Source: Alcaligenes faecalis
GTDB taxonomy: Bacteria; Pseudomonadota; Gammaproteobacteria; Burkholderiales; Burkholderiaceae_B
Direction: 5' to 3'
Length of the DNA stretch: 64,000 nucleotides
Assembly: GCF_002443155.1 (NCBI RefSeq)
Contig: NZ_CP023667.1
Location: forward strand, 2,666,001-2,730,000
Under the pieces are notes generated by a model that did not search any database, had not been told where the DNA came from, and was given only the letters and a program-made list of their open reading frames with translations. Position 1 is the stretch's first letter. The number at the start of each line of letters is the position of its first letter. The position numbers were made by a program, and so were the translations under genes. Shown here piece after piece: positions 7,187 to 63,190 of the stretch.

Positions 7187-8079
7187 ATCTTTCGGGCCTC
7201 GGCAGCAGCAAACAATCCTTTAGGACGGACGGCCAACACCAGTGCCATTACCGCGTAGATGGAGAAAAGTTCGATTTCGGGCCAGTAATGCACGGCAAAG
7301 GAGCGCACCAGGCCAACGATCACGGCACCGAGAGCGGCACCGGGCAAGGAACCCAGACCACCGATCACGACCACGGCGAAGGCCATCACAATGACCTCGA
7401 CACCCATGCCGGGAGCAACAGAAATCGTAGGAGCGGTCAGCGCACCACCCAGGGCGGCCAGCGTGGCGCCTGCAATAAAGGTCAGCAGGAAGTAGCGTTG
7501 CACGTTAATGCCCATGGCCTGGCTGACTTCGCGGTCATGAATCACGGCCAGCAGGATGCGGCCCTGACGCGAATACTTCAGGAACAAGGTCAGGAACAGG
7601 CCAGCCAGAATGGCAGCAACAACAATCACAAAGCTGTAGGTGGGGTAGAACAGGTCGCCGAATTCGACGTTACCCAACAGACCGTAAGGTTCGGCGATCA
7701 CATAAGGATCCACGCCCCAGACCAGCTTGACGGTATCTTCCAGAATCAGGAAGACCGCATAGGTAATCAGCAAAGAGACAACAGGTTCTTCCTGGTAGAA
7801 GAAGCGCAGCAAGCCATATTCAATGACAAGCCCCAGGACCAGACCGGCAATAACCGCGGCCAGGATCAGCATCAGATAGCTGCCATAAGGGCTTTGATCG
7901 GTAGAGAGCCACTGCGTCACCATGGTGACGGCGGTATAGGCGCCAATGGTATAGAGGCTGCCGTGGGCCATGTTCAGGATCTTCATCACACCATAGATCA
8001 GCGTGAGTCCGACCGCGACCAGAAACAGCCAGGCGGCGTACATGATGCCATCTATTAGGGCAGCAGAAAGAAGAGACAT
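7183..8079 (-). CDS. livH: Branched-chain amino acid-type ABC transporter permease (LivH)
   Basis: A 298-residue inner-membrane permease of the LivH family with about eight hydrophobic segments, the LivH signature GVMKILNMAHGSLYTIGAY near residues 32-50, and the coupling region LLAVIHDREVSQAMGI. The ATG at 8079 is preferred because it starts directly at the conserved N-terminus (MSLLSAALIDGIMYAAW). A GTG at 8118 would add 13 residues that look non-conserved. About 170 bases with hairpins separate it from livK, which may lower its expression relative to the binding protein. Confidence 0.88.
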   Translation of the reverse strand: MSLLSAALIDGIMYAAWLFLVAVGLTLIYGVMKILNMAHGSLYTIGAYTAVTMVTQWLSTDQSPYGSYLMLILAAVIAGLVLGLVIEYGLLRFFYQEEPVVSLLITYAVFLILEDTVKLVWGVDPYVIAEPYGLLGNVEFGDLFYPTYSFVIVVAAILAGLFLTLFLKYSRQGRILLAVIHDREVSQAMGINVQRYFLLTFIAGATLAALGGALTAPTISVAPGMGVEVIVMAFAVVVIGGLGSLPGAALGAVIVGLVRSFAVHYWPEIELFSIYAVMALVLAVRPKGLFAAAEARKI

Positions 8080-8101
8080 AGTCGGTTTCTGTGGAAATGG
8101 A

Positions 8102-8252
8102 ATAAAAAATGCCACCACGCCTTCGGCGCGCTTCCCCTTATGGGAGAAGCTTTTACCTGGGAGTGGCCTAGCGGTAAAAACCGGACATGCAAAACAAGAT
8201 CTTGCATGCCCGGATTTTCAGGGCAGCGTCCCTTGCGGGACGCTTGCTCAAC
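8102..8252 (-). promoter_or_regulatory. livK-livH spacer with hairpins (expression step-down)
   Basis: Just after the livK stop the minus-strand transcript can form a strong hairpin AGCGTCCC-GCAA-GGGACGCT (8225-8244) and a second GCCC/GGGC stem. Close to livH a CGCC/GGCG stem (8118-8128) is followed by an A/T-rich run (8101-8110). Such hairpins between a binding-protein gene and its permease genes commonly stabilise the upstream mRNA and attenuate read-through. This is inference from sequence only. Confidence 0.45.
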
Positions 8253-9551
8253 TTAGTGCTTCAAACCGCCCTTGATCCAGTCGATGGACTTCACGCCTTC
8301 GGGAGGAGTGACTTCTTCGGGTTTGAAGTGACGCAAGTCGGTGTAGCTGATCACGCCTTTATCGTTTTTCACCACGCCCAAGGTCGTACCTTGAACAGCC
8401 TGGTGACCTTTACCCAGGGACATGGTCACGTCACCCGATGGGCTCTCGAAAGTCAGGTGCTCAAAGGCGCTGATCACTTGTTCGGTGGAAGGCGCTTTGC
8501 CTTCGTTGGCAGCCTGGGCTTTTTCGTAAGCGGCTTTCAGACCCAGCAGGGTTTGCGTCATCTTGTAGGATGGGTAGCTAGGATCGGCATTGAATTGCTC
8601 GCGGTAGCTGGCACGCAACCAACGGTTCAATTCATTGTCAGGAGCGAAAGCAGCGTGTGGGCCGCGAGCACCGATGATGGTGCCGGTAGGAATCTGGTTG
8701 TTGGCACGGTGTGTCGCGGTTTCACCAGCGGTCAGCACGGTCAGGGTGTTGCGGAACAGACCACGTGGCAGAGCCTGCACCACGAAGCCTTCCAGATCGC
8801 CACCCCAGAAGCTGGAGTGAATCACTTCAGGACGGGCGGCCATCAAGGACGAGATTTCAGCGTTGTACTGACCGGCGCCCAGTTTAGGCATTTGCGAAGT
8901 CTTGGCTTCTACACCGGGTTTGAGGGCTTGCAGCGTGCCTTCAAAGTCGTGCCAGGCGTCCTGGCCCCAGGCGTAGTTCTGGTTGATACCAGCGTAGCTT
9001 TTCAGCTCGGGGTTGCGCTCCAGCACAAAGCGGGCAGCCGCCACGTTGTCCATGGTGGCGTGGGCCACAGGACGGAACACGTATTTGTAGCTGGCATCTT
9101 CAAACAGGCGCGGTGTGCCGCAGTCGAAAATCAGCGTCAGTTTTTTCAGCTCTTCAGCAACGGGGGCGACGGCCAGGCAATCGCCCGAGGAGATGTAGCC
9201 AACCACGATGTCCACGTTCTGTTGCTGAACCAGGTTGCGGTATTCGCTAACCTGTTTGGCCGTGCCGCCGTTCTCGTCGATAAAGACCAGTTCAATCGGT
9301 GCGCCACCCAGACCCTTGGTGTTGTAAGGGGCAGGTACTTTACCTTCATTCAATTGGGCAGCCGTCAGTTCAGCGGCGTTCTTGGCAGGCACGCCAAACG
9401 GACCGGAAGCAGCGCCGGACAAGAAAGTCACCACACCAATCTTGATGGGTTTGACATCATCAGCGGTGGCAGTCGTGCTAGCCATGATGCCAGCGGTGGC
9501 CAGTGTCAGGGCCAAAGTCAATTTTCGTGGGGTTGCAGACAGGATAGACAT
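8253..9551 (-). CDS. livK: ABC transporter substrate-binding protein (LivK type)
   Basis: A 432-residue periplasmic binding protein (type I fold, HAAT family). A cleavable signal peptide spans residues 1-30 (basic SATPRK, then LTLALTLATAGIMASTTATA before DDVKPIKIGVV). The start at 9551 has a strong AAAGGAG site; upstream in-frame codons lack one. The family's N-terminal KIGVVTFLSGAASGPFG is present, followed by the ENGGTAKQV region. It delivers the ligand to LivHMGF. The ligand is unknown; the flanking dehydrogenases point to a small organic acid, alcohol or amide rather than leucine. At 432 residues it is longer than leucine-binding proteins (~370), as is usual for the Burkholderiales organic-acid branch. 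Confidence 0.88.
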   Translation of the reverse strand: MSILSATPRKLTLALTLATAGIMASTTATADDVKPIKIGVVTFLSGAASGPFGVPAKNAAELTAAQLNEGKVPAPYNTKGLGGAPIELVFIDENGGTAKQVSEYRNLVQQQNVDIVVGYISSGDCLAVAPVAEELKKLTLIFDCGTPRLFEDASYKYVFRPVAHATMDNVAAARFVLERNPELKSYAGINQNYAWGQDAWHDFEGTLQALKPGVEAKTSQMPKLGAGQYNAEISSLMAARPEVIHSSFWGGDLEGFVVQALPRGLFRNTLTVLTAGETATHRANNQIPTGTIIGARGPHAAFAPDNELNRWLRASYREQFNADPSYPSYKMTQTLLGLKAAYEKAQAANEGKAPSTEQVISAFEHLTFESPSGDVTMSLGKGHQAVQGTTLGVVKNDKGVISYTDLRHFKPEEVTPPEGVKSIDWIKGGLKH

Positions 9552-50929: not shown

Positions 50930-52219
50930 TTACAGCTGTGCTGGCTCCGTCTGCACTTGATACACGGGATAGCTTCGACACAAGGTCACGATTTTTTCAC
51001 GGATCTCGTGCTTGATCGTATCCAGGGTGCCAGCCTCATAGGCATCGAGCACATCACACAAGTAATGCGCCAGCTGCTCGCAGTCCGCCACCGTAAAGCC
51101 GCGTGTCGTCACGGCGGGCGTTCCGATACGGATACCCGAGGTCACCATGGGCGAGCGCGGATCGTTGGGCACCGAGTTCTTGTTTACGGTGATGTAGGCA
51201 TCTGCCAAGGCATCACTGGCCTCTTGCCCGGTGTAGGGTTTGGCCGACAAGTTGATCAGCATCATGTGGTTATCGGTCCCGCCTGAGACGATGTTATGGC
51301 CACGCTGCATCAATACCGCCGCCATGGCGCGGGCATTACGGACCACGTTTTGCTGATAGGTACGGAATTCCGGCTGCAGAGCCTCTTTGAAAGCAATGGC
51401 TTTGGCCGCAATCAAGTGCATCAGGGGGCCACCTTGCACGCCAGGGAAAACCGCGGAGTTAAGGCGCTTGTAGAAATCGTCGCTTTGCCCTTTAGCCATG
51501 ATCACGCCACCGCGTGGACCGCGCAGGGTTTTGTGTGTCGTGCTGGTGACCACATGCGCGTATGGCAAGGGGCTGGGGTACTCACCCGCCGCCACCAGGC
51601 CCGCCACGTGGGCCATATCAACCCAGAACCAGGCACCCACTTTGTCGGCTATCTGACGCATGCGCGCCCAATCCTTCACACGCGAATAGGCGGAGAAGCC
51701 ACCAATCAACATTTTGGGCTTGGTCTCGACAGCGATACGTTCCATCTCGTCGTAATCGATCAGCCCGGTTTGGATATCCACCCCGTAAGGAACAATATTG
51801 TAGAGACGCCCGGAAATATTGATGGGGTTGCCGTGTGTCAGGTGCCCGCCCTGAGCGAGGTTCATCCCCATCACCGTATCGCCCGGTTTAAGCAAAGCCA
51901 GGAACACAGCAGTATTGGCCTGCGCTCCGGCGTGAGGCTGCACGTTGGCGTAGTCGCAATCGAACACGGCTTTCAGGCGCTCGATAGCCAGACGTTCGGC
52001 CACGTCCACAAACTCGCAACCGGCGTAGTAACGCTTGTCCGGGTAACCCTCGGCGTATTTGTTGGTAAACACGGAGTTCTGAACCTGCATAACCAAAGGG
52101 CTGGCGTAGTTTTCTGATGCAATCAGTTCTACGTGATCTTCCTGACGGCTTTCTTCGCCCTGAATGGCCTGAGCCAATTCCTTGTCGAATTCAGCCAGGC
52201 TGAGTGTGTTGTCGTACAT
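50930..52219 (-). CDS. glyA: Serine hydroxymethyltransferase (canonical copy)
   Basis: A 429-residue PLP enzyme interconverting serine and glycine with tetrahydrofolate. The PLP Schiff-base Lys230 is in [22 protein letters not shown], the GGHLTHG region, VDMAHVAGL, the folate-region motif [11 protein letters not shown] and the carboxylate-binding Arg in [10 protein letters not shown] are all present. It is 73 bases downstream of serC on the same strand, with a partial hairpin between, so the two may be cotranscribed. It should be read against the second, lysine-less copy at 55018-56313. Confidence 0.94.
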
Positions 52220-52292: not shown

Positions 52293-53375
52293 CTAACCGT
52301 GCGTGCGCTTGAACTCACGCATGAACTCTGCCAGCGCCTGTACCGCATCCAAGGTGACGGCGTTGTAGATGCTGGCGCGCAAGCCCCCCGTTGATTGATG
52401 GCCCTTCAAGCCGTGAAAGCCATTCTTTTGCGCTTCTTCGGCAAATAAATTATCTAAATTAGTTTCAGCAATATGAAATGGAACATTATTGATGGATCGA
52501 TAATCAGGTAAAACATTATTGATATAAAAACCATCACTACCATCAATAAGCTCATAGAGCACTTGCGATTTTTTCTTATTTATTTTGTGCAATACTTCTA
52601 TTCCACCAACGCGCTCAATCCATTCCAGCATCAAACCCAGCACATACCAGGAAAAGGTAGATGGCGTATTTAATAGTGATTGTTTTTTTGCCTGAATGGA
52701 AAAATCCAAAGCTTGTGGCGTACTAGCCAAAGGCTTGTCTAAAATAGCGGGATCAAGCAATACCAGCGTGACACCGGCAATTCCCATATTCTTCTGGGCT
52801 GAGGCGTAAACCAAAGCGTGAGACGAGATATCAAGCGGTTTTGACATCAGGCTGGAGCAGGCATCACAGACTAATGGAATAGGCGACTTGGGCGGTTTTG
52901 AAAATTGCAAGCCCTGTGCGGTTTCATTTTCCGTGTAATGCAAATAAGCCGCATCCCGATTAATATTAGATTCATTAATCTCGGGAATACGATCAAATCC
53001 AGTTTCATAAGAGCTGGCTATGATTCTGGCATTCCCATATTGCCTGGCAGCATTAGCTGCTTGTTCCGACCATAAACCCGTATGTATATAGTCCGCTGTG
53101 TTTGTTCGATGAAACAAGTTCATCGGTATTTGAGAAAACTGCAGGTACGAACCCCCTTGCAGGAGCAAGACGTGATAATCCGATGGAACAGCCAGGACAC
53201 GACGCACAGCGGCGTCGGTACGATGGGCAAAATCCATGAAAGGCTGGGAACGATGGCTGATTTCCATCACGGACACCCCTGTGCCCGCAAAATCAAGCAG
53301 CTCATCACGTATTTGCAATAGAACATCCATTGGCAAGGCGCTGGGCCCTGCGCTGAAATTAAAGGGTCGGGACAT
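52293..53375 (-). CDS. serC: Phosphoserine aminotransferase
   Basis: A 360-residue PLP aminotransferase of the SerC family. It starts MSRPFNFSAGPSALP, has the VLLLQGG block, the PLP Lys in SAQKNMGIAG, and the C-terminal HQSTGGLRASIYNAVTLDAVQAL. Its central part (about 52440-53110) is clearly more AT-rich than the flanking genes, with codons such as AAT, ATA and TTA that are rare elsewhere in the window, suggesting a different origin. It is divergent from dnfR, and its promoter carries the DnfR-motif arrangement, so it is probably part of the dnf regulon. It may correspond to one of the two 'transferase' genes (T1) of the published dnf cluster; I cannot verify that label. The ATG at 53375 starts at the conserved N-terminus. 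Confidence 0.9.
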   Translation of the reverse strand: MSRPFNFSAGPSALPMDVLLQIRDELLDFAGTGVSVMEISHRSQPFMDFAHRTDAAVRRVLAVPSDYHVLLLQGGSYLQFSQIPMNLFHRTNTADYIHTGLWSEQAANAARQYGNARIIASSYETGFDRIPEINESNINRDAAYLHYTENETAQGLQFSKPPKSPIPLVCDACSSLMSKPLDISSHALVYASAQKNMGIAGVTLVLLDPAILDKPLASTPQALDFSIQAKKQSLLNTPSTFSWYVLGLMLEWIERVGGIEVLHKINKKKSQVLYELIDGSDGFYINNVLPDYRSINNVPFHIAETNLDNLFAEEAQKNGFHGLKGHQSTGGLRASIYNAVTLDAVQALAEFMREFKRTHG

Positions 53376-53441: not shown

Positions 53442-53499
53442 AGTCTACGAGCACAATGGTCTGATTAGTCAGACCATTAATATTCTCTGGAGCAGACCG
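53442..53499 (-). promoter_or_regulatory. serC promoter with two DnfR-type sites
   Basis: On the minus strand, CGGTCTGC (53499-53492) and TGGTCTGA (53476-53469) are direct repeats with starts 23 bp apart. A TAGACT -10-like hexamer (53447-53442) starts 29 bp after the second repeat. The second repeat is also half of a perfect dyad AATGGTCTGA-TTAG-TCAGACCATT (53455-53478), whose plus-strand half lies about 37 bases before the dnfR start and may serve autoregulation. Confidence 0.75.
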
Positions 53500-53500
53500 C

Positions 53501-55006
53501 ATGACGCGTTCGTTTGAACTGGACACCTTGAAGATGCGTCTTAACGATGACGAACTTCAATCCCTGGATCTTCACCAGCGCATTCAGCGTGCCTTGCGGG
53601 CATTGATTCTGGATGGCGCCCTGGGTCCCGGGGTCAAGCTGCCTGCCACACGCTCCCTGGCCAAATCTCTGAGCATGGCCCGCGATACGGTTGAAAACGC
53701 CTATGTTCAGCTGCATCGCGACGGCTTTATCGTGCGACGTGAAGGCTCAGGCAGCTATGTTTCTGAATCGGTCGGCACGGAGCTGCGCGGCAGTGCCTAC
53801 CGTCGCATCAAAGCCCAGGATCTGAAACGCAGCGTGATGGAACCCGGCACGGGTTTAAGCCGCCGGGGTCGCGCCGTGTTTGAAAGTGGCGGCATTGCCG
53901 ATCAACAGACCATCAAGGCCTTTGCCACGGGTTTGCCAGAAACCCGCAACTTCCCCACCGATGTGTGGGAGCGCCTGCAACGTCAGGCCATGAAAGACTA
54001 CCGGGCCAACATCCTGCTGCATGGCGACCCGCAAGGCACCGAGTCCCTGCGTAAAGCGATTGCCGTGTACCTGAATCTGGAGCGTGGTGCGAAAGTCTCT
54101 GCCGATCAAATTTTGATTCTGAGCAGCACGCGCCAAGCCCTGTTCCTGTGTGCGCAATTGCTGGTCGATGCTGGCAAACCCATTCTGGTCGAGAACCCCG
54201 GCTACTTCGGCGCCCGCAAAGCCTTTGAAGCGGCCGAGGCCCGTGTGGTACCGATTGGTGTAGACGAACAAGGTTTGCGCACCGATTTGCTCAATGAAGA
54301 TCGCAGCGGCGCAAACTGTATTTATGTAACGCCCTCGCACCAGTATCCCACCGGGGCTACCATGTCCCTGGAGCGTCGTCTGGAACTCATACACTGGGCA
54401 GCAGAAAATGGCCGCTGGATTATGGAAGACGACTACGACAGCGAATTTCATTACGACGGGCTACCCACGGCATGTGTGCAAGGTCTGGATAAATACCAGC
54501 GCACCATCTACCTGGGCACCTTCAGCAAAACCCTGTATCCGGGCCTGCGCATGGGCTATATGGCCTTGCCGCCCGAGCTGGTCAAACCCTTTACCCAAGC
54601 CCGCAGCATCATGGATGGCCATACACCGCAAATCCTGCAACTGACGCTGGCGCGCTTTATGGAAGACGGGCATTACAACTCTCATATTCGCGCCATGCGC
54701 AAACTGTATGCCGGGCGACGAGAAATCATGCTGGAAGCCATCGAGCAGCACTTGCAAGGCATAGTCCGTGCAGCTCGACCTGAAGGTGGTTTGCAGATTC
54801 CCTGCTTTCTGGAGCCGGGCTGGTCAGAAGAACACACGCTGCGCCGCGCTTTGAGTGCGGGCGTTCAACTGCCAGGTTTGAGCCGTCTGTACATTGGTGA
54901 GGAAAAACAACAGGGCTGGTTGCTGGGCTATGCATCCCTGACCGCCTACGAGATCGAATCCGCCATGTTGCGTCTGGCCAACGCACTCCGCCAGGGCAAA
55001 GGCTAG
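53501..55006 (+). CDS. dnfR: MocR-family transcriptional regulator DnfR
   Basis: A 501-residue MocR/GabR-type regulator. The GntR winged helix is at residues ~25-95 (LHQRIQRALRALILDGALGPGVKLPATRSLAKSLSMARDTVENAYVQLHRDGFIVRREGSGSYV). The aminotransferase-fold domain begins ~residue 135, with PLP Lys343 in YLGTFSKTLYPGLRMGY and the Asp pair in MEDDYDSEFHYDGLP. From memory, A. faecalis DnfR is a MocR activator of dnfABC that recognises TGGTCTGT; this gene sits in exactly that context. The start ATG follows the dyad operator, with no strong ribosome site. It is convergent with the second glyA, with stops 11 bases apart. Confidence 0.85.
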   Translation: MTRSFELDTLKMRLNDDELQSLDLHQRIQRALRALILDGALGPGVKLPATRSLAKSLSMARDTVENAYVQLHRDGFIVRREGSGSYVSESVGTELRGSAYRRIKAQDLKRSVMEPGTGLSRRGRAVFESGGIADQQTIKAFATGLPETRNFPTDVWERLQRQAMKDYRANILLHGDPQGTESLRKAIAVYLNLERGAKVSADQILILSSTRQALFLCAQLLVDAGKPILVENPGYFGARKAFEAAEARVVPIGVDEQGLRTDLLNEDRSGANCIYVTPSHQYPTGATMSLERRLELIHWAAENGRWIMEDDYDSEFHYDGLPTACVQGLDKYQRTIYLGTFSKTLYPGLRMGYMALPPELVKPFTQARSIMDGHTPQILQLTLARFMEDGHYNSHIRAMRKLYAGRREIMLEAIEQHLQGIVRAARPEGGLQIPCFLEPGWSEEHTLRRALSAGVQLPGLSRLYIGEEKQQGWLLGYASLTAYEIESAMLRLANALRQGKG

Positions 55007-55017
55007 GTCAGGAAAAA

Positions 55018-56313
55018 TCAGTACATCAAGGGGAATCGCCGGTTCAAGTCGGCAACCCCTTCCAGAATGGCATTCTCGGTGCGGGGATTGCGCGAACCAC
55101 TGCGCACCCCGCCCAGCAAGGCCAGAATCATGTCGCCGATTTCCTTGAAATCGTCCTCGCCCAAACCGCGCGTGGTACAGGCGGCGCTGCCCACACGCAC
55201 CCCCGAGTACGCACCAGTGACCTGCTCATAAGGCACCCGGTGCTTGCTCAAGCTAATGCCTAACTGAGCCAGAACCCGCTCCACCAAAGGCCCGGACAAG
55301 TCCCAAGGGCGCAAATCCACCACACCAAAATGACAGTCTGTACCGCCTGATACCACTGTCAGCCCACCTTCGGCCAAACGACGACACAAGCTGCGCGCAT
55401 TGATGATGACGGACTGGGCATAGGCCTTATAGGACGGACTCATCGCCTCACCCAAGGCCACGGCCTTGGCCGCCAGAATGTTCAGCAAAGGCCCGCCTTG
55501 CAGCCCTGGATACACCGCCTGGCTCAAGCGCTCGGCCAGCTTGGGTTCATTGCTCAGGATGATCCCGCCACGCGGACCGCGCAAGGTGCCATGCGTGGAG
55601 AAAGTCGTAACGTGCGCATGCTTGACGGGCGACTCCATCAGCCCCGCAGCAACCAGTCCCGCACTGTGCGCCAAATCCACCATCAGGTAGGCATTGACCT
55701 CGTTGGCGATATTTCTGAACTCGGCAAAATTCGGGGTCCGTGAATAAGACGATCCTCCGGCAATGATCAGCCGTGGTCGTTCCTTGTGAGCCAGAGCGCG
55801 GACTTCATCCATGTCCACCCATTGCGTCTGACGATCCACCCCATACGAGCAGGTCTGAAACCAGCGTCCGGACACATTGAAATGCGAGCCATGGCTAAGG
55901 TGCCCACCCGCACTTTGGTCCAGCGCCAGAATCGTGTCGCCCGGTGAGAGCAAGGCCAGATACACCGCCAGATTAGCCTGACTGCCCGAGTGCGCCTGCA
56001 CATTGGCATAGGAGGCCCCAAAAACCGCCTTGGCCCGCTCGATGGCCAGCTCTTCAGTTTGATCGGCTTGTTCGCACCCGCCGTAAATCCGTTGCCCAGG
56101 ATAGCCTTGCGCCTGCTTGTTGCTGAGCAAGGAGCCCTGCACGTCCAGAACGGAGCGGCTCAGGTAATTCTCGGAAGCGATCAGCTCAATGGTGTGTTGT
56201 TGGCGACGCCGTTCGGCTTCGATGATGTCCCAAAGATTGCGATCGCTTTGCTGTAGAAATTGCGAACCCACCAGAGGCAGGTGGGGGGTGTCGCCACCGG
56301 CAAGACTCTTCAT
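55018..56313 (-). CDS. Serine hydroxymethyltransferase paralogue lacking the PLP lysine
   Basis: A 431-residue GlyA homologue. Overall it matches SHMT (LIASENYLS, GGHLSHG, VDLAHSAGLVAAG, and Arg of YSGVRVGSA). At the Schiff-base position, however, it reads [12 protein letters not shown], with Gly242 (codon GGC, 55590-55588) instead of Lys. It also lacks the folate-side SVPNDP loop (it reads HRVPYEQVTGAYSG) and has IY where GlyA has the YY pair. It therefore cannot form an internal aldimine in the normal way. It is divergent from dnfA, with its own paired DnfR-type sites, so it belongs to the dnf regulon (perhaps the T2 gene of the published cluster). The ribosome site is AGGA, 8 bases from the ATG. 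Its function is unknown. Confidence 0.85.
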   Translation of the reverse strand: MKSLAGGDTPHLPLVGSQFLQQSDRNLWDIIEAERRRQQHTIELIASENYLSRSVLDVQGSLLSNKQAQGYPGQRIYGGCEQADQTEELAIERAKAVFGASYANVQAHSGSQANLAVYLALLSPGDTILALDQSAGGHLSHGSHFNVSGRWFQTCSYGVDRQTQWVDMDEVRALAHKERPRLIIAGGSSYSRTPNFAEFRNIANEVNAYLMVDLAHSAGLVAAGLMESPVKHAHVTTFSTHGTLRGPRGGIILSNEPKLAERLSQAVYPGLQGGPLLNILAAKAVALGEAMSPSYKAYAQSVIINARSLCRRLAEGGLTVVSGGTDCHFGVVDLRPWDLSGPLVERVLAQLGISLSKHRVPYEQVTGAYSGVRVGSAACTTRGLGEDDFKEIGDMILALLGGVRSGSRNPRTENAILEGVADLNRRFPLMY

Positions 56314-56418
56314 GGGAGTTCCTGTTTAGAAATTGGCTACTGTTGCCACCGTGCAGACTTTTCAAACACAGGCAAAAGTGCAGCCCTGGCATGACGATTC
56401 CAAGGGCGAAAGATAAAC

Positions 56419-56476
56419 ATCCTATTCTGTTTATCGACCTATCAAACAGTCCATTAAAAATAAATCCACCAGACCA
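56419..56476 (-). promoter_or_regulatory. Second-glyA promoter with two DnfR-type sites
   Basis: On the minus strand, TGGTCTGG (56476-56469) and TGGACTGT (56453-56446) have starts 23 bp apart. TAGGAT (56424-56419) starts 29 bp after the second repeat. Each repeat differs from TGGTCTGT at one base. Confidence 0.75.
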
Positions 56477-56607
56477 CTTTTAATTATTGTTATTTGAATA
56501 AACATTCAAAGCATAAAGAATTAAAAATCACCTGAAACCAAGCTATAAAGCCAATCCCGATTATTCTTGTCAACAATTAAAACAAGATTCAAATTTTTAT
56601 TATTAAG

Positions 56608-56665
56608 TGGTCTGTTAAATAGCCGAAAAATGGTCTGTCATTTATTGTCATAGGATCATTAGAAT
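56608..56665 (+). promoter_or_regulatory. dnfA promoter with two perfect DnfR sites
   Basis: TGGTCTGT at 56608-56615 and again at 56631-56638 (starts 23 bp apart), then TAGAAT at 56660-56665, 29 bp after the second copy. There is no good -35 hexamer, which fits a promoter needing the activator. The motif is the DnfR recognition sequence as I recall it from A. faecalis. Confidence 0.85.
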
Positions 56666-56816
56666 GCAGCCAACGAATACTCAAGACCCATACTTCTAAA
56701 CGCTCAAGCAGATTATCACCTTTCTCTATCTGCGCACGATAAAAACATCCTCAGTTTTCCCACGACTACAGGAAACTCCATTGCTTTAACGGCAGTTCAA
56801 CCACGCTGATCCCCAC

Positions 56817-56847
56817 GGTTTGAGAAACCCGGCAACGGGATTTTTTT
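56817..56847 (+). promoter_or_regulatory. Possible attenuator in the dnfA leader
   Basis: A terminator-like stem CCCG-GCAA-CGGG (56828-56839) is followed by A and seven T. An alternative hairpin GGTTT-GAG-AAACC (56817-56829) overlaps its 5' arm, so the two exclude each other. It lies 130 bases upstream of dnfA. The stems are short (4-5 bp), so this is tentative. Confidence 0.45.
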
Positions 56848-56977
56848 GGGCCTTGTCCATAAGAATCGGCAAATCCTTTTAAGCCTGCGAATTTCCATTT
56901 GGAAATAAAGATGGGTGGAATAAAGAAACGACCTGTTCATTTCGAACAGATCGCAATCAACAGCAAGGAAGTTTGAA

Positions 56978-57931
56978 ATGACAATCAAAAGCTACGAAAC
57001 TGATGACGCCGTACGTAATATGCTGCAAAAGCTGTCTGTACTTTGGAAAAACCGGGCTGCCGTGAATCAGGAGCTGCCGGACTACAACAATCTGGCGTTC
57101 GATCCCAACAAGGCTGACTTCAGCGAATGCCTCTTGCCGTTCCGCGAGCATCAGGCCTGGCTGGAAGCACCTGAAGAATTGAAATCGCAGTGCTTGTCCT
57201 ACGCTTGGGGCATTTACAACCTCAAGACCATTTATGTTGAATGCAACGTGGTCACCCCTTCTTGCGAAGACATCATCAAGACCCCGCCCCCAAGCGCCAA
57301 CCGCAATCTGCTGCAAGATGTGATGTCCCAGGCTTTGCTGGACGAGGCCCTGCACACGCGCATGTCGATCATGGCCTGCAACTACATCTACTCCATGCGT
57401 GGTTTGACGCCCCTGGATTTCACCAATTTCAACCTGGTGCAGTGGCGCAATGACATCCTGAGCCAGTGCAGCTCCGAATCCGAGCGTCGCCTGACCCGCT
57501 TTGCCATTGCCTGCGCCTCCGAGACCCTGATTACCGACTATCTGAAGACCATGGCCGAGGACAAGAGCATCCAGACCGTGTGCCATGAAGTCACCCGCAC
57601 TCACGCCATGGACGAGTGGAGCCATTCCAGCGTGTTCAGCTTTGTGGCCTCCGACATCATTCACGGCCTGAGCCAGAAAGAGCGCGAGCACATGCGTGCC
57701 GTGATTTTGCGCACCGTGGAAATGTTCGCCAACAATGAAATGGGTGCCTGGGAAAAGGTCTTCTCCATGGTGAACTTCCCCAACGCTCGCGACATCTTGC
57801 ACGACACCGGCGACTCCAACGAAATTGGTGTGTACACCGGCTCGGTAGAAAGCCTGATCGAGCGCATTGGCTTGAACAGCAAATCCGGCAAGGCCCAGCC
57901 CGAGGCCGAACAGCAGGAGGCGCTGCAATGA
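56978..57931 (+). CDS. dnfA: AurF-type diiron N-oxygenase DnfA
   Basis: A 317-residue helical diiron oxygenase. All seven metal ligands expected from AurF (p-aminobenzoate N-oxygenase) are present with near-identical spacing: Glu88, Glu123 and His126 (DEALH), Glu182 (ASETL), His209, Glu213 and His216 (HAMDEWSH). From memory, DnfA with DnfB forms N2 from hydroxylamine, the key step of Dirammox. It is the first gene of dnfABC plus a pyridoxal kinase, under a DnfR-activated promoter, with AAGGA 9 bases before the ATG. It overlaps dnfB by 4 bases. The C-terminal ~20 residues are a polar Glu/Gln-rich tail. Confidence 0.9.
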   Translation: MTIKSYETDDAVRNMLQKLSVLWKNRAAVNQELPDYNNLAFDPNKADFSECLLPFREHQAWLEAPEELKSQCLSYAWGIYNLKTIYVECNVVTPSCEDIIKTPPPSANRNLLQDVMSQALLDEALHTRMSIMACNYIYSMRGLTPLDFTNFNLVQWRNDILSQCSSESERRLTRFAIACASETLITDYLKTMAEDKSIQTVCHEVTRTHAMDEWSHSSVFSFVASDIIHGLSQKEREHMRAVILRTVEMFANNEMGAWEKVFSMVNFPNARDILHDTGDSNEIGVYTGSVESLIERIGLNSKSGKAQPEAEQQEALQ

Positions 57932-58980
57932 CAGCCATGATTCAGGCGCGCTGCGAGACCGTTCGCCCCGAGGCCGGGAACGTCAAAGTGTTTACCTTGC
58001 GAGTGCAAAGTGGCCACTTTGATTTTCTGAGCGCCTTGCGGGCAGGCAAGCATGTCGCCCTGAGCTACCCCGATACCGGCGGCACCATTCAACAGCGTAT
58101 GTATTCGATCACCCGTGTGGCCGATCCAGACCTGATTGAAATTGCCGTGAAAGGGTCGGGCCGCAATAGCGTCTCCGATCATCTGCATGCCACCTTGCGC
58201 GAGGGCATGAGTGTGCCCCTGCAATATGTGGCGGGTGAGATCTCGGTGGACTCGATTGTGGGTTACCAGCGTATCGCCATGATCGCCGGCGGCATTGGCA
58301 TTACCCTGCCCATTGCCTTGCTGCGTGAATTGGCGGCGCGAGCCCAGGACGGCTTGCCTGTACCACAAGTACATTTGCTGCTCAGTATTGCCCGTATTGC
58401 CGACATTCCTTTCCTGCACGAGCTGCTGCAGCTGGACCTGGGCACCAGCTGGTTCACACTGACGGTGTTTGTCACGCAGGAAAAAATCCGCGAAAGCGCT
58501 CATTTCAAAGTGGGACGCCCCTCTTTTGAGAATATGGAGCAATTGAAAGACCCGCAGGCCGTGGTGATTTGCGGCAGCCATGGGTTTGCCCAGGCCTTGC
58601 GCGAATACACCATTCAGGCGCACCCCATCTCGCACATGTTGATTGAAGCCTTCTCCCCACCGGCCAAAGCGGGTGTGGAAATCCTGCCTGAAGCAGGCAG
58701 TGCCCCCTTGCAAATCAATGTACGCAGCACCGGACAAACGCTCAACCCTGAGCCGGGCAGCAGCCTGCTGGAAATGCTGGAAGCAGGCGATGTGCCTATT
58801 CGCAGCCAATGCCGTTCGGGCATTTGCGGCGCTTGCCGGGTACAGATATCGGAGGGCGAATACCGCTCCGAACCGGACTTTTGCCTGAGTGATCAGGACA
58901 AGGCCCAGGGCCATGCGCTGGCGTGTTGCACCTTCCCCCTGTCGGGTGCCATTAATGTAGACATCGGTACCACGAGCTGA
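57928..58980 (+). CDS. dnfB: FAD/NAD(P) oxidoreductase with C-terminal 2Fe-2S ferredoxin domain, DnfB
   Basis: A 350-residue ferredoxin-NADP reductase-type protein in the phthalate-dioxygenase-reductase order: flavin domain with RMYSIT at 57-62, nucleotide domain with GGIGITLP at 121-128 and VVICGSHGF near 212-220, then a plant-type 2Fe-2S domain with Cys295, Cys300, Cys303 and Cys333 (CRSGICGAC...C). It is the expected electron donor to the diiron oxygenase DnfA, whose stop it overlaps (ATGA). An adjacent Cys334 is a second candidate for the fourth ligand. Confidence 0.9.
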   Translation: MTAMIQARCETVRPEAGNVKVFTLRVQSGHFDFLSALRAGKHVALSYPDTGGTIQQRMYSITRVADPDLIEIAVKGSGRNSVSDHLHATLREGMSVPLQYVAGEISVDSIVGYQRIAMIAGGIGITLPIALLRELAARAQDGLPVPQVHLLLSIARIADIPFLHELLQLDLGTSWFTLTVFVTQEKIRESAHFKVGRPSFENMEQLKDPQAVVICGSHGFAQALREYTIQAHPISHMLIEAFSPPAKAGVEILPEAGSAPLQINVRSTGQTLNPEPGSSLLEMLEAGDVPIRSQCRSGICGACRVQISEGEYRSEPDFCLSDQDKAQGHALACCTFPLSGAINVDIGTTS

Positions 58981-59012
58981 CATCCTTACCATCTGGATTG
59001 AAAGAAACTCTT

Positions 59013-59735
59013 ATGAAGAAAGTCATCGCACTGCGTCATATCCATTTTGAAGACTTGGGCACACTGGAACCTGTTCTGATCGAACAGGGCTACCAAGTTC
59101 AATATATTGACCCTTCCGTCGAGTCACTACGCCATGTGGGTGAACAGGACGCTGACCTGCTGGTTGTATTGGGCGGGCCAATCGGCGCCTACGACGAAAA
59201 GATTTACCCCTTCCTGTCCGATGAGCTGGAACTGATCAACAAGTTCTTGCTGGCAGGAAAACCCCTGCTGGGCATTTGCCTGGGCGCGCAACTGATTGCT
59301 CGTGCTCTGGGAGCCAATGTGTATCCGCTGGGTGTGAAAGAAATCGGTTTCTCTCCCCTGAAACTGAGTGAAGCGGGCAAAGAATCGCCCCTGGCCGCCG
59401 TCAGCGGCATTCCCGTCCTGCACTGGCACGGGGATCAGTTCGACATTCCCGATGGAGCCATTCACCTGGCCAGCACGGACGTAGGCCCCAACCAGGCCTT
59501 CTCCTTTGGAAGCCAGGTATTGGGTCTGCAATTTCACCTGGAGGCCGACACCAGCAAGCTGGAACGCTGGCTGGTTGGTCATGCCAACGAACTGGGACAA
59601 GCGGATATCGACCCGCAGATGCTGCGTCTGGAAGCCATGGCGGTACAAAAACGCCTGCACGCCGCTGCTGCTACGGTCCTGACCAACTGGCTCAGCCAAC
59701 TTAAACAAGCCAGTTCCGCTGATTGTGCTGCATGA
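59013..59735 (+). CDS. dnfC: Class I glutamine amidotransferase DnfC
   Basis: A 240-residue class I (GATase1) protein similar to stand-alone GMP-synthase-like amidotransferases. The triad is Cys89 (GICLGAQ), His175 and Glu177 (LQFHLEAD). It hydrolyses glutamine or acts on a gamma-glutamyl compound. No synthetase partner is encoded here, so ammonia (or a related amine) may be delivered to the DnfA pathway. dnfC is reported, as I recall, to be needed with dnfA and dnfB for ammonia oxidation. The ATG at 59013 is used; a TTG at 58998 is in frame. It overlaps the next gene by 4 bases. Confidence 0.88.
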   Translation: MKKVIALRHIHFEDLGTLEPVLIEQGYQVQYIDPSVESLRHVGEQDADLLVVLGGPIGAYDEKIYPFLSDELELINKFLLAGKPLLGICLGAQLIARALGANVYPLGVKEIGFSPLKLSEAGKESPLAAVSGIPVLHWHGDQFDIPDGAIHLASTDVGPNQAFSFGSQVLGLQFHLEADTSKLERWLVGHANELGQADIDPQMLRLEAMAVQKRLHAAAATVLTNWLSQLKQASSADCAA

Positions 59736-60598
59736 ACACTGCTGTAACGTTTGTTGATCGCGAACGACATCCCTACCATGTGGATGTCGTTTCGATTCAG
59801 TCTCAAGTGGTCTACGGTCGGGTGGGCAACAATGTTGCCGGCCCGACCTTACGTAGGCACGGCTTTAAAGTCGCCGCCGTTCCCACCGTGTTGCTCAGCA
59901 ACAACCCGCAATACCCCACCGTGCACGGCGGTGCCGTCCCCGATGAATGGCTGAAAGGCTTTCTGGATGACCTGGTGCTGCGTGGTGCGCTGGACAAGGT
60001 GCGCGCTGTCCTGATCGGTTATCTGGGCAGCGCCAATCAGGCCGTCATCATTGCGAACTGGCTGAAGGCCTTGTTGCAAGACCATCCGGACACTCTGGTC
60101 ATCGTGGACCCGGTCATAGGCGATCTGGATGTAGGAGTCTACGTAGACCCGGCGCTGATTCCCGCCTATCACGAAACCTTGCTGCCGCTGGCCACGGGCC
60201 TGACTCCCAATAACTACGAGCTGTCCTTGCTGTCCCAACAGCCTTGCGACACCATCCAGGGCAGTTCAAGCGCCGCGCACGCCTTGCTAAATGGCCGTAC
60301 CGAATGGGTCATTGCTACCAGCGCCGCTCCCGACTCCTGGCAGGATGGCCAGATCAAATTATTAATGTCGCGCAAAGAACCCCGCGCCGACACCCTGCTT
60401 AGCCATCCTCGCGTCGATTGTGCCGCCAAAGGCACCGGCGACCTGTTTGCCTCCACCTTGCTGGCCCACCTGATTTTGGGTGCAGACCTGCATTCGGCGG
60501 TGCATACAGCCAGTGCCAGTGTGCTGCTTCAATTGGAGTTGACCCGACAGGCCGGACATCAGGAATTAATTTTGCCGATAGATCCTTTCCGAGCCTGA
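59732..60598 (+). CDS. pdxK: Pyridoxal/pyridoxine kinase (PdxK-like; dnfD position)
   Basis: A 288-residue ribokinase-fold kinase that phosphorylates pyridoxal, pyridoxine or pyridoxamine. It matches PdxK closely: SIQSQVVYGRVGNNVAGPTLRRHG, AVPTVLLSNNPQYPTVHGGAVPDEW, IVDPVIGDLDVGVYV, LTPNNYELSLL, and the anion-hole/catalytic KGTGDLFAS. It is the fourth gene of the dnf operon (start overlapping dnfC), the place of 'dnfD' in the published cluster, a label I cannot check. PLP salvage makes sense beside PLP-dependent SerC, GlyA and MocR proteins and beside hydroxylamine, which destroys PLP. Confidence 0.9.
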   Translation: MNTAVTFVDRERHPYHVDVVSIQSQVVYGRVGNNVAGPTLRRHGFKVAAVPTVLLSNNPQYPTVHGGAVPDEWLKGFLDDLVLRGALDKVRAVLIGYLGSANQAVIIANWLKALLQDHPDTLVIVDPVIGDLDVGVYVDPALIPAYHETLLPLATGLTPNNYELSLLSQQPCDTIQGSSSAAHALLNGRTEWVIATSAAPDSWQDGQIKLLMSRKEPRADTLLSHPRVDCAAKGTGDLFASTLLAHLILGADLHSAVHTASASVLLQLELTRQAGHQELILPIDPFRA

Positions 60599-60683: not shown

Positions 60684-62675
60684 ATGGGGCTGCCTTTTAA
60701 AAGCACGCTACATCCACGGGTGTTCTGGGGATCTACCTTTATCGTCCTGGTCTTTTTGCTGATCGGGATTATTTTCCCTAAAGACGCCGCACTTATTTTT
60801 GAGCAGTTACAAAACTGGGTCATCAAAAGTTTCGGCTGGTTCTATATCCTGGCTGTGGCCTTGTTTTTCTTTGCCGTCGTCTATCTGGCATTAAGCCGCT
60901 ACGGCAACTTGAAATTAGGGCCGGACGACTCGGAACCTGACTACCCGTATCTCACCTGGATGGCAATGCTATTTGCCGCCGGTATGGGTATTGGTTTGAT
61001 GTTCTTTGCCGTGGCCGAACCACTGCAACACTTCTCGGCCCCACCCTCGGGTCTGGCCAGCACAGTGGAAGCCGCCCATCAGGCGCAGATCATCACCTTC
61101 TTTCACTGGGGCGTTCATGCCTGGGCCGTCTATGCGGTCGTGGGTTTGTCGCTGGCCTATTTCTGCTTTCGCTACAACCTGCCGTTAACGATTCGCTCGG
61201 GCCTGTATCCCTTATTTGGCAAGCGCATTGAAGGCTGGATTGGCGATAGCGTGGATATTTTCGCCGTTTGCGGCACGCTATTTGGTATTGCCACCTCCAT
61301 GGGTTTGGGTGTGCTTCAAATCAATGCCGGTCTGGAGCATTTATTTGGCTGGCCACAGGAAACCTGGCTGCAAATTGTCCTGATTGTGGTGGTTACCTCA
61401 CTGGCTACCTTATCTGTTGTCAGTGGACTGGATGTTGGCATTCGCCGCCTGTCCGAACTGAATTTGCTGGTTGCCATTGCCTTGATGCTGTTTGTGCTCG
61501 CCGTGGGCCCCACAGCCTTTTTGATGAATGCTTTTGTACAGAATATCGGTGGTTATCTCGATAACTTCTTTGCACGCTCATTTAGTACACAAGCATTCCG
61601 CGGGCAAAGCTGGATGAAAGCCTGGACCTTGTTTTACTGGGCCTGGTGGATCGCATGGTCGCCTTTTGTCGGCATGTTCATCGCCCGCATCTCGCGTGGT
61701 CGCACCGTGCGTGAATTTGTGCTGGGCGTATTGCTGGTGCCCACCGTCTTCACCTTCTTCTGGATGACCGTTTTTGGCAACACCGCCATCTTCCTGGATA
61801 TGGGTGTGGCCGCGGGTCAACTGGCTCAGGACGCTGCCGCCAATGCATCCGTGGCGCTGTTCGAGTTCCTGGAATACCTGCCCTGGTCCAATGTGACCTC
61901 GACGCTGGCCATTATTCTGGTCGCCATTTTCTTTGTGACCTCGGCTGACTCGGGCTCTTTGGTTATCGATACCTTGGCCGCCGGCGGCGTGGAAGACGCT
62001 CCAGTCTGGCAACGCATTTACTGGTGCGCGCTTGAAGGTACCGCCGCCTCGCTGCTCTTGCTGGCCGGTGGTCTGACTGCCTTGCAAACCGTGACGCTAG
62101 TCAGTGCCCTGCCCTTTGCCATCATCATGTTCTTGTTGATTCTGGGGCTGTTCAAAGGCATGAAGGCAGATATGTCACGATTGCGTCGTCAAGGTCCCAT
62201 GTCCGGCCCGGCACCGGGTTCGGAAGTGTCCTGGCGCCGCCGCCTCTCGACCATTCTGCACACGCCCAACCAGCGTGATGCCCGTCGCTTCATGGGTGAG
62301 ACCGTGGTTCCCGCCTTGCAGGCTGTGGCAGACGAGCTGAGTAAACGCAACCTGAATGTCAGCCTGGAAACGGGCGAGCCGGATACGGCGCAACTGACCA
62401 TTCAGGCCGACAACCAGCGCAACTTTGTCTATGGCGTGGAATTGCGTGCACGTCGGGTTGCCAGCTTTACGGCAGCGGCTGCTCGCAACGAGCAGGCTCG
62501 ACCTCAGGAATGGCAAGTGCGCACTGTCTTTGCCGATGGCAGTCGGGGTTATGACCTGATGGGCTTGTCTTCCAGCCAGGTCATCAACGACATCCTGAAC
62601 CACTTCGAGCGCTATCAGTCGCTGGTCACCTCCGAGGCGACAGCCCTGTACGCGCAGTCGCCCGACCCAACCTAA
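60684..62675 (+). CDS. BCCT-family (betaine/choline/carnitine) transporter
   Basis: A 663-residue, 12-segment sodium- or proton-coupled transporter. The BCCT signature is clear: GMGIGLMFFAVAEPLQHF near residues 105-122, and the Trp-rich helix FYWAWWIAWSPFVGMFIARISRGRTVREF near 318-345. After residue ~510 there is a ~150-residue soluble C-terminal domain, as in BetT. It probably imports choline or a betaine. It begins 86 bases after the pyridoxal kinase; shared transcription with the dnf operon is possible but no DnfR site is seen. It overlaps soxR by 4 bases, convergently. Confidence 0.9.
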   Translation: MGLPFKSTLHPRVFWGSTFIVLVFLLIGIIFPKDAALIFEQLQNWVIKSFGWFYILAVALFFFAVVYLALSRYGNLKLGPDDSEPDYPYLTWMAMLFAAGMGIGLMFFAVAEPLQHFSAPPSGLASTVEAAHQAQIITFFHWGVHAWAVYAVVGLSLAYFCFRYNLPLTIRSGLYPLFGKRIEGWIGDSVDIFAVCGTLFGIATSMGLGVLQINAGLEHLFGWPQETWLQIVLIVVVTSLATLSVVSGLDVGIRRLSELNLLVAIALMLFVLAVGPTAFLMNAFVQNIGGYLDNFFARSFSTQAFRGQSWMKAWTLFYWAWWIAWSPFVGMFIARISRGRTVREFVLGVLLVPTVFTFFWMTVFGNTAIFLDMGVAAGQLAQDAAANASVALFEFLEYLPWSNVTSTLAIILVAIFFVTSADSGSLVIDTLAAGGVEDAPVWQRIYWCALEGTAASLLLLAGGLTALQTVTLVSALPFAIIMFLLILGLFKGMKADMSRLRRQGPMSGPAPGSEVSWRRRLSTILHTPNQRDARRFMGETVVPALQAVADELSKRNLNVSLETGEPDTAQLTIQADNQRNFVYGVELRARRVASFTAAAARNEQARPQEWQVRTVFADGSRGYDLMGLSSSQVINDILNHFERYQSLVTSEATALYAQSPDPT

Positions 62676-63148
62676 ACCTCTGATCCGGCCTCCAGCTTTC
62701 TTTCCAGAATCTGGGGGCCGGGCCCTTGCTGGCCCAGGATATCGGCCGGGTTACGCAAGGGACATTCACTCATGGACAAGCACCCACAGCCAATACAGTG
62801 GGTCAGCTCATCACGCAATCGCGTCAATTGCTCAATTCGATCATTCAAACTGGCTTGCCAACGACTGGACATGGCCCGCCATTGTTTGCTGGATGGCTTG
62901 CTGCCCGGTGGCAAACCACGCAAGGCCTCGTGGATTTCTTCCAGAGGAATGCCGGTACGCTGCGCCACTTTGATGATCGCAATGTAGCGTAAAACCACCG
63001 AATCAAAACGACGCTGGTTACCACTGTTGCGGGTGCTGGCAATCAAGCCTTTGGCTTCATAAAAATGCACGGTGGACACGGGTACACCACTGCGTTTGGC
63101 CACTTCCCCCACCGTCAAAGCACGACTGAAATCCACTGTTTTTGCCAT
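62672..63148 (-). CDS. soxR: Redox-sensitive transcriptional activator SoxR
   Basis: A 158-residue MerR-family activator (E. coli SoxR is 154). The N-terminal helix-turn-helix is LTVGEVAKRSGVPVSTVHFYEAKGLI. The 2Fe-2S cluster ligands Cys118, Cys121, Cys123 and Cys129 are in CIGCGCLSMSEC, the same spacing as the E. coli protein. It responds to redox-cycling compounds. The ATG at 63148 starts the conserved region. It is divergent from a small membrane protein and an RND adaptor, with a perfect SoxR box between them. Confidence 0.94.
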   Translation of the reverse strand: MAKTVDFSRALTVGEVAKRSGVPVSTVHFYEAKGLIASTRNSGNQRRFDSVVLRYIAIIKVAQRTGIPLEEIHEALRGLPPGSKPSSKQWRAMSSRWQASLNDRIEQLTRLRDELTHCIGCGCLSMSECPLRNPADILGQQGPGPQILERKLEAGSEV

Positions 63149-63159
63149 CTCGACACCCC

Positions 63160-63190
63160 TTGACCTCAAGTTAACTTGAGGTTTTATAGT
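63160..63190 (+). promoter_or_regulatory. SoxR-activated promoter
   Basis: Perfect 18-bp dyad CCTCAAGTTAACTTGAGG (63164-63181) lies between -35 TTGACC (63160-63165) and -10 TATAGT (63185-63190). The 19-bp spacer is the over-long type that MerR/SoxR activators need. It points to the adaptor genes and overlaps the soxR upstream region. Confidence 0.9.

What the first reader, a model, noticed from the sequence alone, without database searches (positions are those of the whole stretch)
53442..60598. A Dirammox (dnf) locus: direct ammonia oxidation to N2
The order serC / dnfR / glyA-like / dnfA / dnfB / dnfC / pyridoxal kinase, the AurF-type diiron oxygenase with its own flavin-2Fe-2S reductase, a stand-alone glutamine amidotransferase, and exact TGGTCTGT boxes before dnfA all match what I recall of the dnf cluster of Alcaligenes ammonioxydans and A. 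faecalis, where dnfABC turn ammonia via hydroxylamine into N2. The chemistry is recent, and the roles of the amidotransferase, the two 'transferase' genes and the kinase are not settled to my knowledge.
Basis: partly seen in the sequence, partly recalled or inferred. Interest (0 to 1): 0.9.

Follow-up and report, generated by a model that had tools for sequence, protein, structure and literature searches.

The report
Hydroxylamine-making cluster with B6-enzyme guard
This is the already published Alcaligenes gene cluster that makes toxic hydroxylamine from ammonia by way of glutamine; its unexplained extra genes look like a set that protects vitamin-B6 enzymes from that poison, and one of them is an enzyme look-alike that has lost its key lysine.

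Summary
The window lies in an Alcaligenes genome and holds the published dnfT1RT2ABCD ("Dirammox") cluster. All seven genes, the DnfA diiron residues (7 of 7) and the TGGTCTGT boxes are there. So the locus is known. The label "direct ammonia oxidation to N2" is only partly right: in print, DnfABC do not bind ammonia, glutamine synthetase is required, and part of the N2 may form abiotically.

New here is a reading of the accessory genes. Of 34 loci with dnfA, B and C, 28 carry clear vitamin-B6 (PLP) genes, against 1 of 40 control stretches and 0 of 7 DnfA loci without DnfC. The PLP genes differ by lineage (SerC, SHMT, ArgD, ALAS, YggS, pyridoxal kinase) but share the cofactor that hydroxylamine attacks. 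DnfR scores as a PdxR-type B6 regulator. DnfT2 is an SHMT homologue without the PLP-binding lysine (Gly in Alcaligenes, Ala or Thr in 14 of 15 Pseudomonas, Lys in Delftia), yet under strong purifying selection.

I read T1, glyA2, T2, D and R as a hydroxylamine/PLP protection-and-sensing module, not a route to hydroxylamine. This is inference from sequence. Counter-evidence: six DnfC-bearing loci lack clear PLP genes, and the DnfC contrast rests on few independent lineages.

The parts
50930..52219 (-). glyA2: extra serine hydroxymethyltransferase, intact catalytic Lys230 (STTHKTL)
   Evidence: Pfam SHMT 1e-166; one of three SHMTs in the genome; next to dnf also in Pseudomonas and Delftia
52293..53375 (-). 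dnfT1: SerC-type phosphoserine aminotransferase, extra copy, catalytic lysine kept
   Evidence: NCBIfam PRK05355 453 bits, cut-off 253; a 44%-identical copy lies elsewhere; lysine kept in 22 of 22 rows
53457..53476 (.). palindromic box TGGTCTGATTAGTCAGACCA between T1 and R, probable DnfR site
53501..55006 (+). dnfR: MocR-family regulator (GntR plus aminotransferase domain, PLP lysine kept), PdxR-type by score
   Evidence: NCBIfam PdxR 431.7 bits, cut-off 320; Glu444, the site of the published loss-of-function mutant, present
55018..56313 (-). dnfT2: SHMT-fold protein without the PLP Schiff-base lysine (STHGTL)
   Evidence: aligned to PDB 4j5u; dN/dS 0.033
56470..56476 (-). TGGTCTG box on the T2 side of the T2-A gap
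56608..56638 (+). two direct TGGTCTGT boxes 23 bases apart, before dnfA
56978..57931 (+). dnfA: AurF/CmlI-type diiron N-oxygenase; E88 E123 H126 E182 H209 E213 H216 present
   Evidence: Pfam AurF 1.6e-50; residues
57928..58980 (+). dnfB: NAD(P)H-flavin-2Fe-2S reductase
   Evidence: Pfam Fer2, NAD_binding; 2Fe-2S cysteines
59013..59735 (+). dnfC: class-I glutamine amidotransferase, Cys89, His175, Glu177 kept
59732..60598 (+). dnfD: pyridoxine/pyridoxal/pyridoxamine kinase
   Evidence: NCBIfam PRK08176 356.6 bits, cut-off 342

Best explanation
This is the published dnf cluster of Alcaligenes. It works in two halves. (1) dnfABC makes hydroxylamine. Ammonia is first fixed into glutamine (in print: glnA required). 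DnfA, fed by DnfB, N-oxidises the amide or an unidentified compound derived from it (proposed in print, not shown). DnfC, an amidotransferase, then releases free hydroxylamine (proposed in print), part of which ends as N2 by DnfA or abiotically (disputed). (2) T1, glyA2, T2, D and the regulator R form a vitamin-B6 module (my inference). Hydroxylamine turns PLP into a dead oxime, so the cell induces spare copies of sensitive PLP enzymes (SerC, SHMT; in other lineages also ArgD and ALAS), a PLP kinase and in other lineages a PLP carrier (YggS). R, a PdxR-type PLP-binding regulator, would time this by sensing PLP or its loss. T2 is an SHMT fold that keeps several PLP contacts but lacks the anchoring lysine, so it is probably not an enzyme but a holder or sensor of a PLP adduct (weakest step).
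For: Identity: order, diiron residues and genus. Module: of 34 dnfABC loci, 31 hold at least one PLP gene, 28 without the weak PNPOx-like family; 1 of 40 control stretches; 0 of 7 DnfA loci without DnfC. Collapsed at 85% DnfA identity: 9 of 12 and 0 of 4. The PLP genes change between lineages, which fits a shared cofactor better than one pathway. SerC and SHMT here are extra copies: two SerC in each of 9 dnf-bearing Alcaligenes, one in the dnf-less G006; three SHMT over the cut-off against two. R passes the PdxR cut-off, as do one Pseudomonas and one Delftia R tested. Boxes sit before T1/R, T2/A and, in Pseudomonas, the BenE-YggS unit. T2: lysine lost, dN/dS 0.033. Literature: a yggS gene is induced with dnfABC (PMC8629993); the dnf aminotransferase and hydroxymethyltransferase genes are induced (PMC11160463); dnf-cluster proteins except DnfR fall in mutants of dnfA, B or C (PMC12575085), as a product-sensing regulator would give, though the deletions themselves may explain it; hydroxylamine forms a PLP oxime and inhibits transaminases (PMC7277093); dnfABC alone lets E. 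coli make hydroxylamine.
Against: Six of 34 dnfABC loci have no clear PLP gene: L027, L028, L036 only a PNPOx-like gene (the one scanned has no NCBIfam match), L096, L099, L100 none. The families were chosen after seeing some of the same loci. The DnfC contrast gives 1 to 3 independent pairs on the tree and cannot reach significance; at 80% clustering it is 5 of 8 against 0 of 2, p 0.44. Two of the seven DnfC-less stretches (L032, L093) are short or end soon after B, and an unlinked DnfC was not sought. The dnf-less G006 keeps mocR-benE-glyA2 and yggS-pdxK-mocR cassettes, so the PLP genes are not tied to dnf alone. In the text I saw, no experiment shows that T1, T2 or D affect hydroxylamine tolerance. 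A PLP pocket without lysine would not itself resist hydroxylamine.
Confidence: 0.6

Rival explanations
1. The T genes are biosynthetic: they build an unidentified organic amine or amide carrier that DnfA oxidises, so hydroxylamine is the by-product of a secondary-metabolite pathway.
For: Proposed in PMC11160463 from co-induction. PMC11440038 infers an unidentified intermediate between glutamine and DnfA.
Against: dnfABC alone suffices in E. coli (reported). The PLP genes differ between lineages and several dnfABC loci have neither SerC nor SHMT in the stretch held (L030, L035, L078, L079, L097, L098). YggS and pyridoxal kinase are not expected to make a carrier. T2 has lost its catalytic lysine in Alcaligenes and in 14 of 15 Pseudomonas T2.
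Confidence: 0.2
2. The neighbourhood is historical: dnfABC landed beside an older MocR-governed vitamin-B6/serine-glycine cassette, and the PLP genes have no functional link to hydroxylamine.
For: G006, without dnfA, has mocR-benE-glyA2 and yggS-pdxK-mocR cassettes.
Against: The association recurs with different PLP genes and arrangements in Alcaligenes, Pseudomonas, Delftia, Xanthobacter, Herbaspirillum and Verminephrobacter, boxes of one kind stand before both halves, and expression is joint in print.
Confidence: 0.2
3. DnfT2 is still an active SHMT or other PLP enzyme that uses a different lysine or a substrate amine.
For: His126, Ser175, Asp200, His203, His228 and Arg363 are kept. Delftia T2, L076 and L084 keep the lysine.
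Against: In Alcaligenes Tyr55, Glu57, Tyr64, Leu121 and Asn347 are changed as well. No migrated lysine was looked for in a structure.
Confidence: 0.15

Closest known systems
dnfT1RT2ABCD (Dirammox) cluster of Alcaligenes ammonioxydans HO-1 and A. faecalis JQ135
   Same: Gene content and order, diiron residues with the same numbering, DnfR Glu444, single copy, genus.
   Different: Nothing in gene content. The HO-1 protein sequences themselves were not in hand for a direct alignment.
AurF / CmlI diiron N-oxygenases
   Same: DnfA matches Pfam AurF and PDB 5hyg (CmlI by recall; listed as uncharacterized protein) and 3chh, AurF.
   Different: 28-30% identity to them in print; works beside an amidotransferase and a PLP-gene neighbourhood.
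Serine hydroxymethyltransferase (GlyA)
   Same: DnfT2 aligns over nearly its whole length with solved SHMTs.
   Different: No Schiff-base lysine; acid-base and folate-site residues (roles recalled) also changed in Alcaligenes.
MocR regulators PdxR and PtsJ
   Same: DnfR passes the PdxR model cut-off; the MocR next to the unlinked Alcaligenes yggS nearly reaches the PtsJ cut-off (554.5 against 573).
   Different: Governs dnf in print; PLP sensing not tested. The rhizopine MocR model scores about as high on DnfR but far below its own cut-off.
Target-duplication self-resistance in antibiotic gene clusters (recalled concept)
   Same: Spare copies of the poison's targets sit beside the genes that make it.
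   Different: Here the target is a cofactor, so several unrelated enzymes are duplicated.

Membership tests
dnf (Dirammox) cluster | Gene order T1-R-T2-A-B-C-D | tested here: met
   order in print
dnf (Dirammox) cluster | DnfA diiron ligands E88 E123 H126 E182 H209 E213 H216 | tested here: met
   7 of 7; published list
dnf (Dirammox) cluster | Single copy, conserved through Alcaligenes | tested here: met
   one match in 9 of 10 genus genomes, G006 none; named 98-99% relatives A. pakistanensis, A. faecalis AU14 and Alcaligenes sp. SORT26
dnf (Dirammox) cluster | High identity to the HO-1 Dnf proteins | not tested
   HO-1 sequences were not retrieved by name
dnf (Dirammox) cluster | Labelled N2 from labelled hydroxylamine or ammonium | not testable with these tools
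   needs an assay
AurF-type diiron N-oxygenase (DnfA) | AurF domain and seven metal ligands | tested here: met
Serine hydroxymethyltransferase (DnfT2) | Schiff-base lysine in the THK motif | tested here: not met
   Gly in the window and in 12 of 12 Alcaligenes-type rows (9 distinct genomes)
PdxR-type MocR (DnfR) | Score over the NCBIfam PdxR cut-off | tested here: met
   431.7 against 320
PdxR-type MocR (DnfR) | Responds to PLP | not testable with these tools
   needs a binding assay
Hydroxylamine self-protection module | PLP genes enriched beside dnfABC | tested here: met
   families chosen after seeing some loci
Hydroxylamine self-protection module | PLP genes follow DnfC across independent lineages | tested here: inconclusive
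   1-3 independent pairs; 9 of 12 against 0 of 4 at 85% clustering (p 0.019), 5 of 8 against 0 of 2 at 80% (p 0.44)
Hydroxylamine self-protection module | Loss of the genes lowers hydroxylamine tolerance | not testable with these tools
   needs mutants

The most novel reading that the evidence does not exclude
dnf-type hydroxylamine production carries its own antidote: a regulon of spare PLP enzymes, B6 salvage and PLP carriers under PLP-sensing MocR regulators. DnfT2 is an SHMT turned into a lysine-free PLP-adduct holder or sensor, the lysine perhaps lost twice. Dirammox would then be mainly a chemical weapon with self-immunity, and relatives such as G006 that keep the cassettes without dnfA may be immune bystanders.
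Probability: 0.4. Interest if true: 0.75.

Novelty: already known. Interest (0 to 1): 0.5.

Why it matters
The cluster is known, but the role of four of its seven genes and the signal for its regulator are not settled in the papers I saw. The comparison gives a testable answer (PLP protection) that competes with the biosynthetic reading in print. It bears on why heterotrophs make hydroxylamine at all (weapon with self-immunity against nitrogen or redox disposal), and it offers a naturally lysine-free SHMT under strong selection as a biochemical puzzle.

Tried and rejected
Box before an obgE-like gene (G000:3116156): a lone palindrome elsewhere in the genome, no B6 or nitrogen gene seen beside it by eye; taken as chance. 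Genome-wide direct repeats TGGTCTGN{4,20}TGGTCTG: no more frequent than the backwards control in this genome (3 against 3), so no wider DnfR regulon is claimed. PNPOx-like PF12900 genes beside C-A-B in L027, L028, L036: the L027 protein has no NCBIfam match at 1e-30, so they are left out of the strict count. A single loss of the T2 lysine was tested against two: two losses fit better, a single one is not rejected (p-AU 0.066). Distribution of DnfA at E 1e-60: 5 of 399 genomes drawn from the order, 18 of 398 from the genus of G793, i.e. Pseudomonas, and only the window's own genome among 369 drawn from the class.

Paper searches with Dirammox, dnfT/R/D, hydroxylamine with PLP, YggS, PdxR, or a lysine-less SHMT: in the listings and passages that I saw, none states the present reading. 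Listings were cut to 10-30 rows, and only open-licence papers are held, so it may be in print elsewhere.

The 40 control stretches (19.9 kb each; test loci 11.2-19.9 kb) were picked by hand at round coordinates in 15 genomes, all of which carry a DnfA homologue.
Full report
Identity. The window lies in a 4.08-Mb single-contig genome. DnfA of the window is 98-99% identical to Alcaligenes pakistanensis, A. faecalis AU14 and Alcaligenes sp. SORT26, and 9 of 10 genomes of the genus (own included) have dnfA, G006 being the exception. Seven genes stand in the published order T1-R-T2-A-B-C-D (order in print, PMC9136411, first of six parts of the text and passages). The seven diiron ligands listed in PMC9478400 (first of five parts) are at the same numbers. 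DnfR Glu444, whose change to Lys silences the cluster in strain 2-29 (PMC9355588, passages), is present. The locus is therefore already known.

What is in print about the chemistry. DnfA alone turned labelled hydroxylamine into N2 in vitro, and none of DnfA, B or C bound ammonia (PMC9478400). glnA is essential and glutamine is an intermediate; DnfA has not been shown to oxidise glutamine itself (PMC11440038, abstract, introduction and first of two parts of the discussion). The same discussion reports another group's view that the hydroxylamine-to-N2 step is abiotic. PMC11160463 (passages) reads the co-induced T genes as suggestive of a biosynthetic pathway. 'Direct ammonia oxidation' is thus not an accurate mechanism.

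The extra PLP genes. In dnf-bearing Alcaligenes, T1 is a second SerC: two copies in each of 9 such genomes, one in G006. T2 and glyA2 bring SHMT copies to three, against two over the cut-off in G006. DnfD scores as a B6-vitamer kinase. Outside Alcaligenes the neighbours change. The 15 Pseudomonas loci of the T1-R-T2 type read glyA2 - argD - yggS - benE - T1 - R - T2 - (MFS) - A - B - C as far as the stretches reach: glyA2 is seen in 10, argD in 12 and yggS in 15. Delftia lacks T1. Xanthobacter has glyA - yggS - pdxK - ALAS beside a MocR and C-A-B. Herbaspirillum and Verminephrobacter have yggS before dnfABC. A further Pseudomonas-genus type (L096-L100) has C-A-B with at most an argD-like gene and a MocR.

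The count. By one BLAST rule, 31 of 34 loci with dnfA, B and C have at least one PLP gene within the 11-20 kb held, 28 of 34 without the doubtful PNPOx-like family, and 31 of 34 have a MocR. Of 40 control stretches one has a PLP gene (a 31%-identical aminotransferase) and one a MocR. Of 7 loci with a DnfA homologue but no DnfC in the stretch, none has either; two of these (L032, L093) are short or end soon after B, and an unlinked DnfC was not sought. Collapsed by DnfA identity, the strict figures with and without DnfC are 13 of 16 and 0 of 5 at 90%, 9 of 12 and 0 of 4 at 85%, 5 of 8 and 0 of 2 at 80%. On the DnfA tree the DnfC contrast rests on 1-3 independent pairs and cannot be significant. 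The families were chosen after seeing some of these loci. Three loci (L096, L099, L100) have DnfC and no PLP gene, and three (L027, L028, L036) only the doubtful one.

DnfT2. The SHMT Schiff-base lysine is Gly in all 12 Alcaligenes-type T2 rows (9 distinct genomes; three are fetched twice), Ala or Thr in the 10 Pseudomonas rows there, and Lys in 3 of 3 Delftia rows. In the wider set, 14 of 15 Pseudomonas T2 lack it; L084 (same genus) and L076 (a Burkholderiales genome) keep it. The 16 SHMT rows that are not T2 all have Lys. Alcaligenes T2 also differs at Tyr55, Glu57, Tyr64, Leu121 and Asn347, but keeps His126, Ser175, Asp200, His203, His228 and Arg363 (three rows; E. coli numbering from a recalled sequence, residue roles recalled). 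Against PDB 4j5u the same lysine faces Gly. T2 is not decaying: median dN/dS is 0.033 over 36 pairs of 9 Alcaligenes sequences, compared with dnfA 0.021, glyA2 0.023, dnfR 0.010, dnfD 0.060 and T1 0.10 (synonymous change is near saturation in many pairs, so these are rough). The T2 clade is firm (100/100); two losses of the lysine fit better than one, but one loss is not rejected (p-AU 0.066).

Regulation. DnfR passes the NCBIfam cut-off of PdxR, the vitamin-B6 MocR (431.7 against 320 bits), and so do one Pseudomonas and one Delftia R (422.2 and 427.1). A TGGTCTG box lies clearly in the T2-A (or T2-MFS) gap of 16 of 20 loci with a full-length DnfR orthologue; in the other 4 it falls inside the stop-to-stop extension of the T2 or MFS frame at about the same place. 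Of five other loci looked at, L014 (DnfR cut by the contig end) has it; L027, L030, L078 and L079, which lack a DnfR orthologue, show none upstream of A that stands out. Boxes also stand before T1/R and, in Pseudomonas, before the BenE-YggS unit. In Alcaligenes a dnf-type yggS sits at an unlinked locus beside a PtsJ-like MocR, without these boxes in its gap. In A. faecalis a yggS-family gene rises with dnfABC under nitrifying conditions (logFC 3.30; PMC8629993, passages with part of Table 1); which of the two yggS copies it is cannot be told. In mutants of dnfA, B or C the dnf-cluster proteins other than DnfR fall (PMC12575085, outline and passages), as expected if the product induces the cluster, though the deletions themselves may explain it. 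That paper reads the role of Dirammox as redox balance.

Mechanism. Hydroxylamine forms an oxime with PLP and inhibits many transaminases (PMC7277093, passages). HO-1 suppresses other bacteria through hydroxylamine (PMC9355588, passages). dnfABC alone gives E. coli hydroxylamine and N2 (PMC9136411). Together with the lineage-varying PLP genes this favours protection and sensing over biosynthesis. Shown here: gene content, enrichment, box positions, loss of the lysine, selection. Inferred: protection, PLP sensing by DnfR, adduct binding by T2. The dnf-less G006 keeps mocR-benE-glyA2 and yggS-pdxK-mocR cassettes: either the module is older than dnf or this strain keeps immunity without the weapon.

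Noticed in passing
L031, L033 (Pectobacterium), L032 (Rouxiella): A 66-67% DnfA homologue with a DnfB-like reductase, an ATP-grasp ligase, an arylamine N-acetyltransferase-like gene, a small hydrolase and an MFS transporter (domains scanned in L031), without DnfC or PLP genes: perhaps a pathway that keeps the N-oxidised product bound.
   Followed up: partly
L093-L095 (genus of G793, Pseudomonas): DnfA homologue (64%) with an uncharacterised ORF of about 260 aa between A and B; in L095 a dihydrodipicolinate-synthase-like gene lies upstream; no DnfC seen.
   Followed up: no
L035 (Verminephrobacter), 7947-8919: dnfA is split over two frames, so it may be broken in this genome or mis-sequenced.
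   Followed up: no
L034 (Proteus columbae), 7944-8606: A shortened DnfA homologue beside an MFS gene.
   Followed up: no
window 60684-62675 and 62672-63169: A BCCT transporter follows dnfD in the 11 Alcaligenes loci; beyond it lies a MerR-type regulator that looks like SoxR (by eye).
   Followed up: no
L045 7236-8600 (G016, same family, other genus): A distant AurF homologue (27%) with an N-terminal extension of roughly 150 residues in the stop-to-stop frame.
   Followed up: no
L167, L184 (G006): An Alcaligenes relative without dnfA keeps mocR-benE-glyA2 and yggS-pdxK-mocR cassettes.
   Followed up: partly
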